Origin: Gracilibacillus ureilyticus
GTDB taxonomy: Bacteria; Bacillota; Bacilli; Bacillales; Amphibacillaceae
Assembly (NCBI RefSeq): GCF_900111195.1
Contig: NZ_FOGL01000001.1
Span: forward strand, 124,001 to 188,000
Reading direction: 5' to 3'
DNA: 64,000 nt
The notes under the pieces were generated by a model. It saw nothing but the letters and a program-made list of their open reading frames with translations, was not told the DNA's origin and made no database searches. The position numbers and the translations under genes were made by a program. Within the stretch, counting starts at the first letter, position 1, and each line of letters starts with the position of its first letter. This document shows positions 56,990 through 63,366 of the stretch, in pieces.

Positions 56990-57610
56990 CTATAAATGAC
57001 GGTATAACCCTACTACTTTTCCTAAAATACTTACATTATCATAAATTAGGGGTTCCATCGTCGCGTTTTCCGGCTGCAGTCTGATATGATCTTTCTCTTT
57101 AAAGAAGCGTTTAACAGTAGCCTCACTATCTTCTGTCATTGCCACTACAATATCTCCATTCACTGCAGTATTCTGCTGTTTTACAATAACTTTGTCTCCA
57201 TCAAAAATGCCTGCTTCTATCATACTGCTTCCTTCAATTACCAGTACGAATAGCTGATCGCCGCTATGTACATCTGTGCTGGGAATAGGTATATATTCTT
57301 CAATGTTTTCCACTGCTGTTATTGGCAGTCCTGCAGTAACTTTCCCGATAACAGGTGCAAAAGCAGCTTCAGGCTTAGGGATATCGATTTCATTGTCCTG
57401 TGTCAATACTTCAATTGCTCTAGGTTTCGTAGGATCTCTTCGAATGTATCCCTTTTTCTCCAGTCTAGCAAGGTGACCGTGCACTGTCGAACTGGAAGCT
57501 AGACCTACTGCTTGCCCAATTTCCCGAACAGAAGGGGGATATCCTTTTAAATCTACTTGTTCTTTAATATAAGCAAGGATCTGTTCCTGTCTTTTTGAAA
57601 GATTTGTCAT
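56990..57610 (-). CDS. lexA: SOS repressor LexA
   Basis: Represses the DNA-damage regulon and cleaves itself when stimulated by RecA filaments. 206 residues from the ATG whose first base is 57610, with AAAGGAG upstream; in-frame codons further up cover its own operators. Winged helix 1-65 ([20 protein letters not shown] near 25-44), cleavage site Ala93-Gly94, catalytic Ser129 in EGSSM and Lys167 in EATVKRF. Four LexA boxes lie in the gap to the divergent operon. Confidence 0.97.
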
Positions 57611-57694: not shown

Positions 57695-57743
57695 TTGACA
57701 AGAACCTTTGTTCGTATATAATAGAGGTACGAACAAAGGTTCT
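57695..57743 (+). promoter_or_regulatory. SOS promoter of the yneA-like/yneB/ynzC operon with two mirror LexA boxes
   Basis: TTGACA (57695-57700), 16-base spacer, TATAAT (57717-57722). LexA box AGAACCTTTGTTCG (57701-57714) fills the spacer, and CGAACAAAGGTTCT (57730-57743), its exact reverse complement, begins at the expected start site. Both fit the Bacillus consensus CGAAC-N4-GTTCG closely. Confidence 0.85.
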
Positions 57744-57757
57744 ATGGAGGGGTAATA

Positions 57758-57853
57758 ATGTTAAAAAAAATGTCTAAAATTGATCTATTCTATTTGATTT
57801 CTTTTGTAGCTGGTATAATCTTTTTATACAGCTCATTTATTTTTAATGTATAA
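57758..57853 (+). CDS. 31-residue SOS-controlled membrane peptide at the yneA locus
   Basis: First gene after the SOS promoter. ATG 57758 has GGAGGGG 5 bases upstream; the frame runs 31 codons to TAA at 57851. The product starts MLKKMSKID, then is hydrophobic from about residue 10 to the end ([19 protein letters not shown]): a short basic N-terminus and one membrane helix. B. subtilis yneA lies exactly here and encodes about 100 residues, a membrane helix plus a LysM domain, an SOS division inhibitor. The LysM part is wholly missing: only 26 bases separate the stop from yneB. Probably a miniature division inhibitor; inference. Confidence 0.7.
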
Positions 57854-57858
57854 AATGA

Positions 57859-58545
<687 letters not shown>

Positions 58546-58606: not shown

Positions 58607-58831
58607 ATGCTTTCTAAAGATAAAATAGCAAGGATTAATGAACTGGCAAAAAAGGCGAAAATAGAGGAACTTAGTCAGGAAGAGAAGAAGGAACAGCAGA
58701 CATTAAGGCAGGAATATTTGAAAAATGTGAGAAAGTCATTTAAAAACCATATGAAAGGAATGACAGTTATTGATCCAAATGGGAATGATGTAACCCCTGA
58801 TAAATTAAAGCAACTTAAATCGAAGAAATAG
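58607..58831 (+). CDS. ynzC: DUF896 family protein YnzC
   Basis: 74-residue helical protein of the DUF896/YnzC family ([20 protein letters not shown] at the start). In B. subtilis it is the third gene of the yneA SOS operon; its role is not known. ATG 58607 after AAAGGAG. The stop codon lies inside the stem of the following terminator. Confidence 0.87.
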
Positions 58832-61431: not shown

Positions 61432-61476
61432 CCACTCTTTCTGTTAGAAAAATTAAAGCAGAAAGGGTGGTTTTTT
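61432..61476 (+). terminator. Terminator-like hairpin containing the integrase ribosome-binding site
   Basis: CCACTCTTTCTG (61432-61443) pairs with CAGAAAGGGTGG (61459-61470), 11 of 12 positions, followed by TTTTTT (61471-61476). The right arm holds AAAGGGTGG, the Shine-Dalgarno sequence of the integrase, whose TTG start lies in or just after the T run. Confidence 0.65.
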
Positions 61477-62383
61477 GTTGTTGGAAGATGCATTAAGCGA
61501 ATATAAGTTCTACTGTCTTGCAAGAAACTATACGGAAAAAACGATGAAGAATAAAGGTCAAGAATACAAGCAATTGAAAAGATACTTGGTAGAGAAGAGA
61601 GGAATTCAAGAACTTGAAAGTATTACATATCATGATATGCGTTCCTACCTCTATCAAAAGCAAAAAGCTGGCTTACAACCTCAAAGTATTCAAAGTATGG
61701 CGAAACAGATTATTGCTTTTTTTAATTGGTGTATTAAAGAAGAATATTTAACTGAAAATCCAATGGATAAAGTTACTTTACCGAAAATACCGAAGAGGTT
61801 AAAAGAAGGTTTTACAAAGGATGAAGTATACAGAATGATACGTTGTTGGAGTGATAAAACTTTTCTGGAAGCAAGGAATAAAACGCTTATTGCAATGATG
61901 AGTGATCTTGGCTTGCGAGCAATGGAGACTAGAACATTAACCATCGAAGATATAAAAGACACCACTATACTTATCCATGGTAAGGGTAACAAAGATAGAG
62001 TTGTGTTTGCTTCTTATCAGTTAAAAAGAATAATGATGAAATATGAACGATTGAGAAAACAATACCTTGAGGTTAAGGGATACGATGATCCACATTATTT
62101 CCTGAATTATAAGGGTGATCCAATTACTCATGCTACTGTTCACAATGTGGTAAAAGAGGCAGCCACGAGAGCAGGAGTTAAGGACGCACATCCTCATAAA
62201 TTTCGTCATTTCTATGCGGTTGAGGTAATCAGCAACGAAAAGGCAAATATTGATTTATTTAGTGTTAGCAAACTTTTGGGGCATTCTCAAGTATCTACTA
62301 CCCAGATATATCTACAATCATTAACTAATGAACAATTAAAAATAAAAGCAAATAACTCAAGTCCATTGGCTAAATTCAAATAA
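61475..62383 (+). CDS. Tyrosine recombinase / integrase of a mobile element
   Basis: 302-residue phage-type integrase. N-terminal SAM-like core-binding domain about 1-105 (YTEKTMKNKGQEYKQLKRYL), catalytic domain about 115-295 with the first arginine in DLGLRAMETRTL near 148, HKFRHF (HxxR) near 241-246, LGHSQVSTTQIYLQ with the second histidine and nucleophilic tyrosine near 267-280. Start is one of three consecutive TTG codons (61475-61483). It marks the left end of an inserted element: nothing from here on belongs to the conserved order. Confidence 0.9.
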   Translation: MLLEDALSEYKFYCLARNYTEKTMKNKGQEYKQLKRYLVEKRGIQELESITYHDMRSYLYQKQKAGLQPQSIQSMAKQIIAFFNWCIKEEYLTENPMDKVTLPKIPKRLKEGFTKDEVYRMIRCWSDKTFLEARNKTLIAMMSDLGLRAMETRTLTIEDIKDTTILIHGKGNKDRVVFASYQLKRIMMKYERLRKQYLEVKGYDDPHYFLNYKGDPITHATVHNVVKEAATRAGVKDAHPHKFRHFYAVEVISNEKANIDLFSVSKLLGHSQVSTTQIYLQSLTNEQLKIKANNSSPLAKFK

Positions 62384-62521: not shown

Positions 62522-62535
62522 AGAACAAACGTTCT
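62522..62535. promoter_or_regulatory. LexA box of the mobile element
   Basis: AGAACAAACGTTCT is a perfect GAAC-N4-GTTC palindrome with the preferred R-N-R-Y spacer (AAAC). It lies 22 bases before the ATG at 62557, next to a possible -10 (TATAGA, 62519-62524). Confidence 0.75.
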
Positions 62536-62556: not shown

Positions 62557-63366
62557 ATGTATCAATCCAAGATAGAATCGTTTAAATCTTATTCCAATTT
62601 TAAGTCTTTAAAAGACTTTAACAATAACGTCGAAATGTTTTTAGCCTGCCATAAGCAAGATTTTACTAAATCAGAATATATCGCTTTTAGAAGATTAACT
62701 AAGTTTTGCGCAAAAATATTTGGTGTGTCCAATGCGCGTATAGATACTATTGTACAAGCTACCAAAGACGATAATGGTGGTATTAGCCGATCTACGTTTA
62801 AACGTATGGTAAAAAAAGCGAAGAAATTGGGTATCTTATCAGTTCATGAGTTGAAACGTGCTAATCAATCGCAATCATCCAATCTTTATGTATTTGAATC
62901 TTTTCGGACTTCAATTGAACCACCGATTGAAAATGCAAAGAACGACCAAAATGCTATTTTATCAATGGCTGTAACAACTCGAATAAATGAGCAATTGAAC
63001 CGCCATAAAACTAGCAATAATTCTAAAACTAATAATCTATTAATTAATACGTATTATGCAAAGCCATATCAGGCTATCTCAGAGGCTATAAGAATATTTT
63101 TAGGTTATGACTCTAAAAAGATAGCAAGTCGGTTGTATGGGGTTTATTTAGGGCAAACAAAGTCACTTAGAGCAACAGAATATTACACCAATGAGGGACA
63201 AGCTGAATTAATTGAAGTGGCTATTTCCGCAATACAGACAACATTTCTTGCGAGTAAAAGAAAAAGCATCCAGAACATTGCTGGATACTTTAATGGAGTT
63301 TTAAGTAAGATGCTTGATGATTTAATGACATTAGATATGTGTATTATAGGTTCCGATTATCCGTAG
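62557..63366 (+). CDS. HTH-domain protein of the mobile element (possible replication initiator or regulator)
   Basis: 269 residues from ATG 62557 with AGGGAGG upstream. The N-terminal 110 residues form a predicted winged helix (GISRSTFKRMVKKAKKLGIL near 87-106). It resembles a family of Bacillaceae HTH proteins on plasmids and integrated elements that often begin MYQS; no function is established, and replication initiation is only a guess from domain type and context. The C-terminal half is helical (SRLYGVYLGQTKSLRA). Preceded by a LexA box; its 3' end overlaps the convergent repressor gene by 23 bases. Confidence 0.7.
   Translation: MYQSKIESFKSYSNFKSLKDFNNNVEMFLACHKQDFTKSEYIAFRRLTKFCAKIFGVSNARIDTIVQATKDDNGGISRSTFKRMVKKAKKLGILSVHELKRANQSQSSNLYVFESFRTSIEPPIENAKNDQNAILSMAVTTRINEQLNRHKTSNNSKTNNLLINTYYAKPYQAISEAIRIFLGYDSKKIASRLYGVYLGQTKSLRATEYYTNEGQAELIEVAISAIQTTFLASKRKSIQNIAGYFNGVLSKMLDDLMTLDMCIIGSDYP

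What the first reader, a model, noticed from the sequence alone, without database searches (positions are those of the whole stretch)
57758..57853. Miniature SOS membrane peptide in place of YneA
Where B. subtilis has yneA (membrane helix plus LysM, a LexA-controlled division inhibitor), this genome has a 31-codon gene for just a basic tip and one membrane helix, with a strong ribosome-binding site and two LexA boxes. No LysM remnant fits in the 26 bases before yneB. The Caulobacter division inhibitor SidA is also a LexA-controlled single-helix peptide of about 29 residues, so a LysM-free SOS inhibitor is credible. Genes this short are usually missed in annotation.
Basis: partly seen in the sequence, partly recalled or inferred. 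Interest (0 to 1): 0.75.

Follow-up and report, generated by a model that had tools for sequence, protein, structure and literature searches.

The report
Thirty-residue SOS membrane peptide replacing YneA
Where common Bacillus species carry YneA, a DNA-damage-induced protein that halts cell division, this bacterium and most sampled members of its family carry only a conserved peptide of about 30 amino acids, and relatives of that peptide also sit beside early genes of prophages.

Summary
A 31-codon ORF (57758-57853) lies between divergent lexA and yneB, behind a 12/12 promoter match with two perfect LexA boxes. It belongs to a conserved family: 136 of 148 yneB loci of the same GTDB family carry an intact 30-35-residue version. 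It evolves as protein: pN/pS 0.21 (0.16-0.26) over 56 disjoint pairs, against 0.94 and 1.96 in the other frames. Of 397 genomes of the order, 49 have the peptide and 246 have LysM-bearing YneA; none has both.

Its profile resembles the YneA membrane helix beyond 100 of 100 column permutations, though few single YneA sequences stand out, so it is probably a YneA reduced to its helix. Unexpectedly, 18 further copies lie outside the locus, 13 clearly and one weakly beside prophage early genes.

Division inhibition is inferred. In B. subtilis the YneA helix alone localises but does not inhibit (PMC13396833), so this clade evolved either a self-sufficient helix or a partner. New variant of a known kind.

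The parts
57758..57853 (+). 31-aa LexA-controlled membrane micropeptide gene, stop included
   Evidence: ORF; conserved in 136 of 148 family loci; pN/pS 0.21; one predicted helix 7-30
57695..57722 (+). promoter-like site TTGACA-16-TATAAT
   Evidence: 12 of 12 consensus match
57702..57713 (.). LexA box 1, GAACCTTTGTTC, in the promoter spacer
57731..57742 (.). LexA box 2, GAACAAAGGTTC, after the -10 element
57746..57752 (+). ribosome-binding site GGAGGGG
   Evidence: read
56990..57610 (-). lexA, divergent
   Evidence: TIGR00498 E 5e-73
57880..58545 (+). yneB, resolvase-like, TTG start
   Evidence: NF049883 E 5.6e-105
58607..58831 (+). DUF896 (YnzC-type) gene
   Evidence: PF05979 E 1.6e-30

Best explanation
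The gene encodes a LexA-repressed membrane micropeptide, a YneA stripped to its N-terminal helix. After DNA damage LexA is cleaved, the promoter fires, and the peptide inserts with its basic end inside. Its helix then docks on the septal wall-synthesis complex, most likely FtsW, and delays division until LexA re-accumulates. Shown by computation: the gene, its operators, protein-level selection, one predicted helix, replacement of LysM-YneA across a clade, copies beside prophage genes. Inferred: common origin with the YneA helix (moderate support), translation, division inhibition, FtsW as target. Because the B. subtilis helix alone is inactive, the clade must have evolved either direct inhibition by the helix or a partner in trans.
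For: Same slot and neighbours as yneA. Two perfect LexA boxes in and after the promoter, and such boxes in 135 of 136 loci. pN/pS 0.21, other frames 0.94 and 1.96. 49 genomes with the peptide, 246 with YneA over its cut-off, 0 with both, of 397; compared handle by handle. Profile-profile score with 54 YneA N-termini 19.0, 0 of 100 column permutations as high. First eight residues net positive in 133 of 136, no charge after the aspartate in 135 of 136. Copies beside early phage genes suggest a host-directed function acting in trans. A 29-residue SOS peptide, SidA, inhibits division by interacting with FtsW (PMC4211646, passages seen).
Against: YneA without LysM and SosA without its extracellular part do not inhibit (PMC13396833; PMC6851548). 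hhalign probability is only 34%; 49 of 54 single YneA N-termini score at or near shuffles, and the five that stand out come from one lineage. FtsW TM7, the YneA contact, differs in the peptide genomes. Conservation does not mark one helix face (p 0.12). Eleven of 148 loci have lost the ORF and one has it out of frame, so it is dispensable in some lineages. LexA boxes are not enriched genome-wide, and I did not check recA or uvrB as a regulon control.
Confidence: 0.6

Rival explanations
1. A TisB/DinQ-like SOS toxin: a hydrophobic peptide that depolarises the membrane and lowers ATP, with no target in the divisome.
For: Short, SOS-controlled, single helix, like DinQ (PMC3567139, abstract and outline seen).
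Against: It occupies the yneA slot, has invariant residues F16 and Y24, a charge-free helix and resemblance to the YneA helix. No Rfam antisense family in the window, though unknown RNAs are not excluded.
Confidence: 0.15
2. A docking peptide that does not inhibit by itself: it binds the divisome as the YneA helix does, and another protein supplied in trans blocks wall synthesis.
For: B. subtilis YneA helix alone localises but is not toxic (PMC13396833). The genome has 13 LysM matches in other proteins.
Against: None of the 13 LysM loci of about 3.1 kb has a perfect LexA box. No partner is known, and the prophage copies have no common LysM neighbour that I saw (by eye).
Confidence: 0.13
3. A leader ORF or coupling element that sets yneB translation; the peptide itself is irrelevant.
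For: Its stop lies 60 nt or less before yneB in 125 of 136 loci, median 25.
Against: pN/pS 0.21 and invariant residues; spacing reaches 1043 nt; copies occur in prophage regions without yneB.
Confidence: 0.05

Closest known systems
YneA of Bacillus (NCBIfam NF010723)
   Same: Position and neighbours, LexA control, single N-terminal membrane helix
   Different: No linker, no LysM, no C-terminal tail; about 30 against 94-120 residues
SidA of Caulobacter
   Same: SOS-controlled membrane peptide of 29 residues; a possible functional parallel (PMC4211646, passages)
   Different: Other phylum; sequence kinship not tested
SosA of Staphylococcus
   Same: Beside lexA, one helix, no LysM (PMC6851548, passages)
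   Different: 77 residues with an extracellular part that is needed for activity (section 9 read)
TisB and DinQ of E. coli
   Same: SOS-controlled short membrane peptides
   Different: Depolarising toxins with antisense RNAs (DinQ: PMC3567139 abstract; TisB details recalled)
Gp11 of phage PhiNM1
   Same: Small early phage membrane protein that blocks host division (PMC11237401, passages)
   Different: 53 residues, two predicted helices, targets MurG and DivIC; sequence kinship not tested

Membership tests
YneA | Gene between divergent lexA and yneB | tested here: met
YneA | LexA boxes at the promoter | tested here: met
   by sequence only
YneA | Single N-terminal membrane helix | tested here: met
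   predicted helix 7-30; charge pattern
YneA | Extracellular LysM domain | tested here: not met
   31 residues, no Pfam match; 26 nt left before yneB
YneA | NCBIfam NF010723 over its cut-off | tested here: not met
   no NCBIfam match to the peptide
YneA | Helix homologous to the YneA helix | tested here: inconclusive
   profile score beyond 100 of 100 permutations, but probability 34% and 5 of 54 single sequences stand out
YneA | Inhibits septal wall synthesis through FtsW | not testable with these tools
   needs experiment or multimer prediction
SosA | About 77 residues with an essential extracellular part | tested here: not met
   30-35 residues in 136 of 136 intact members
SidA | Binds FtsW/FtsN and stops division | not testable with these tools
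   -
TisB/DinQ type I toxins | Antisense RNA regulator | tested here: inconclusive
   no Rfam match in the window; unknown RNAs not excluded

The most novel reading that the evidence does not exclude
A whole clade runs its SOS division checkpoint with a self-sufficient helix of about 30 residues, a minimal natural FtsW inhibitor derived from YneA by loss of LysM. Prophages of the same hosts have repeatedly captured it as an early gene to halt host division.
Probability: 0.4. Interest if true: 0.85.

Novelty: new variant of a known kind. Interest (0 to 1): 0.72.

Why it matters
How YneA stops FtsW once its helix has docked is unresolved in B. subtilis, and LysM is needed there (PMC13396833). 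A clade that keeps the gene, its operators and a helix but has no LysM is a natural experiment on exactly that point. If active, the peptide would rank with SidA among the shortest known SOS division inhibitors and would show what part of a helix suffices to stop FtsW. The prophage copies open a second question, phage control of host division with the host's own checkpoint peptide.

Tried and rejected
Full-length YneA elsewhere in this genome: rejected. NF010723 matches in G000 are weak (best 6.9e-8; none at 1e-14). Its 13 LysM matches lie in loci of about 3.1 kb without a perfect LexA box; these have 0-2 boxes with one mismatch. In the family search 9 of 159 genomes exceeded the YneA cut-off; the only such row displayed is a 653-aa frame that passes with its neighbouring repeats, the other eight were not displayed.

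A conserved helix face: not significant (p 0.12), so none is claimed. Mapping the B. subtilis critical residues onto the peptide residue by residue: dropped, the register is uncertain.

FtsW co-variation: the segment matching B. velezensis FtsW 188-217 is 23-24 residues in 9 of 9 peptide genomes and 26-31 in 12 of 12 YneA genomes. The peptide genomes are related, the alignment beside the gap is uncertain, and FtsW was told from SpoVE by search rank only; the best-scoring hit in G000 proved to be SpoVE-like. An orthology check by neighbouring pyc failed: no pyruvate carboxylase over the cut-off in G000.

Phage and plasmid collections: no match to three peptides in four searches, E limit 10. Class-wide search: 7 of 398 genomes match, all of this family; the kinship of 371 non-matching ones was not displayed.

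In print: nothing on a short YneA in this clade was found in the listings (open-licence papers only). PMC2901685 is not held.

Rows dropped or added: the search pattern required [DE]xF[YF], so columns 9, 11 and 12 are partly selected; four intact ORFs it missed were added by reading. The start taken is the one giving the shortest ORF of at least 29 aa, so start-codon and length counts can be off by one codon. Four of 136 without D at column 9 in gapless register were left out of column counts. The out-of-frame copy L204 counts as not intact. The output was cut. The LexA tree used 87 of 189 rows; three of 192 loci gave too short a LexA; its bootstrap had not settled. Of 30 YneA loci, 15 entered the YneA set.

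Full report
What is in the sequence. The ORF at 57758-57853 is as described: 31 residues, GGAGGGG before the ATG, stop 26 nt before the TTG of yneB. Its promoter matches TTGACA-16-TATAAT at 12 of 12 positions; one perfect LexA box sits in the spacer and a second just after the -10 element. The neighbours are lexA (TIGR00498), yneB (NF049883), a DUF896 gene and a transketolase (the last read by eye). Two annotated Bacillus records show the same order with yneA in the place of the peptide. The window peptide matches no Pfam, NCBIfam or PHROG family at E up to 1.

Conservation. In the genus 16 of 17 genomes, the window's own included, match the single sequence at E<=7.1e-5; the other carries a diverged copy found with the profile. 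YneB was found in 148 of 159 genomes of the family. I took the lexA-yneB interval of all 148 and scanned it by script: 136 have an intact ORF (31 aa in 78, 30 in 55, 35 in 2, 33 in 1 by the start rule used), one has it out of frame, 11 lack it. A profile search agrees: 136 of 159 genomes at E<=1e-4. 135 of 136 intact loci have a perfect GAACN4GTTC within 150 nt upstream, 136 of 136 one with at most one mismatch; mononucleotide shuffles predict 5.3 for the latter. Against this, CGAACN4GTTC is no commoner in the whole genome than its backward control (13 against 15), so LexA control rests on conserved position.

Selection. Pooled over all within-genus pairs pN/pS is 0.33. Over 56 disjoint within-genus pairs it is 0.21 (bootstrap 0.16-0.26), while the two other frames give 0.94 and 1.96; differences fall 186, 81 and 410 on codon positions 1, 2 and 3. 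Against the closest genome the window shows 10 synonymous and 2 nonsynonymous differences. In 132 gapless members F16 and Y24 are invariant, K7 is kept in 123, L20 in 122, F22 in 121; D9 (132), F11 (128) and Y12 (131) are also kept, but those columns helped to find the members. A 44-row alignment that includes divergent and longer members also has D9, F16 and Y24 invariant. The frame is under protein-level selection and is not a remnant.

Distribution. Among 397 genomes of the order 49 match the peptide profile at E<=1e-5; the next best genome is at 0.0018. They are 16 of the 17 sampled genomes of the window's family and 33 in four other families. LysM-bearing YneA exceeds its curated cut-off in 246 of 397; none of the 49 is among them, and 102 have neither (handles compared). 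I fetched 13 of the 33 loci from the other families; all 13 have lexA and yneB beside the peptide and at least two perfect LexA boxes. Of 44 named loci, six carry the peptide (Gracilibacillus halophilus, Oceanobacillus limi, Oceanobacillus halotolerans, Lentibacillus sediminis, Virgibacillus halodenitrificans, one Bacillales MAG) and 38 a YneA. In a LexA tree of 87 of 189 rows the 19 YneA loci fall on one side of one branch (100/99); loci with neither arise at least three times, among them a group of eight genomes close to the window's genus. That fits one switch between YneA and peptide followed by losses; the root is not fixed. Listeria YneA resembles that of B. subtilis (PMC6851548, passage seen), which makes loss of LysM the likelier direction.

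Kinship with YneA. hhalign of the peptide profile against 54 YneA N-termini scores 19.0, probability 34%; 100 column permutations average 10.6 (sd 1.1, maximum 16.5). The best single bridge is the LysM-bearing YneA of Alkalihalobacillus sp. CinArs1 (L018): 14.0 bits on its first 40 residues, reached by 0 of 1080 shuffles, and 10.0 bits when searched full-length. Four relatives score 9.0-10.2 (1-2 of 1080 shuffles as high). The other 49 do not stand out: the next is 3.7 bits, reached by 19 of 1080. Common origin is likely, not proven. AlphaFold2 on a seven-row alignment gives one helix, residues 7-30, mean pLDDT 87. The first eight residues are net positive in 133 of 136 and no charge follows the aspartate in 135 of 136, so an N-inside orientation is expected.

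Prophage copies. Outside the lexA locus the profile finds 14 copies in 13 of 159 family genomes at E<=1e-4 and four more in three genomes of other families (two at E<=3.9e-6, two at 5.2e-4 and 8.0e-4). I looked at all 18. Thirteen have neighbours matching PHROG families of phage early regions: anti-repressors, regulators (phrog_1124), excisionase-like HTH proteins, Erf or RecE recombinases, an SbcC-like protein, a replication terminator, a phage methyltransferase; a fourteenth (L342) has only a PHROG of unknown function. Contig G063:C31 has the length (29,983) of an IMG/VR viral contig that holds an identical neighbouring protein and the same copy. Another IMG/VR contig (L348) holds a weaker copy beside phrog_1124 and RecE-like genes. 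Of the other four, three lie within 2 kb of a serine recombinase matching phrog_125 (L336, L337, L347) and one (L343) had no PHROG match for the two proteins tested. Caldibacillus phage CBP1, whose regulator is 30% identical, has no such peptide in the 4-kb stretch scanned; one phage is no test. One copy (L318) matches phrog_12200, function unknown, at E 1e-4. The weakest copies may be chance frames, but no genome outside the five families reached 1e-4.

How it probably works. In B. subtilis the YneA helix brings the protein to the division site by binding TM7 of FtsW; the LysM domain then blocks septal wall synthesis, and without LysM the helix localises but does not inhibit (PMC13396833; abstract, Results parts 1-2 of 3, Discussion read). 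SosA needs its extracellular segment (PMC6851548, section 9 read). SidA, 29 residues, inhibits by interacting with FtsW (PMC4211646, passages seen); that paper's models place YneA, SosA and SidA all on FtsW TM7 according to PMC13396833, with low confidence and SidA on the other side. My favoured reading is a self-sufficient helix that works like SidA and descends from YneA. That the peptide only docks and a partner blocks is open. In an exploratory comparison the end of FtsW TM7 is 2-8 residues shorter in 9 of 9 peptide genomes than in 12 of 12 YneA genomes, and the proline whose change gives YneA resistance is kept in 4 of 9 against 11 of 12. This fits co-evolution but is confounded by kinship and uncertain orthology, and it can also be read against a shared contact.

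Verdict. Real, conserved, absent from the family libraries tried, and a new variant of the SOS membrane proteins encoded beside lexA. Its function is inferred.

Noticed in passing
L316-L321, L336-L347, L348, L349: Relatives of the peptide outside the lexA locus: 18 copies, 13 clearly and one weakly beside phage early genes, three near serine recombinases, plus two IMG/VR viral contigs (one the same contig as a genome copy).
   Followed up: partly
L393, L397-L404 against L405-L416, L417: FtsW of peptide-bearing genomes is shortened at the end of TM7 (23-24 against 26-31 residues); confounded by kinship, orthology by rank only.
   Followed up: partly
window 62523-62534: A further perfect LexA-type box (GAACAAACGTTC) lies 22 nt before a 269-aa ORF (62557-63366), downstream of a recombinase-like ORF (61475-62383, by eye); the window holds 4 such boxes against 0.84 expected.
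   Followed up: no
L246, L247, L248, L252, L254, L256: Six of the 13 CGAACN4GTTC sites of the genome precede near-identical ORFs that look like a TnpB-type transposon protein (by eye), so many boxes there are not SOS operators.
   Followed up: no
order-level genomes: 102 of 397 genomes have neither YneA over its cut-off nor the peptide; other SOS inhibitors may sit there, or none.
   Followed up: no
L204 (G070): One family member carries the peptide frame interrupted, as read from the printed interval; decay or sequencing error cannot be told apart.
   Followed up: no
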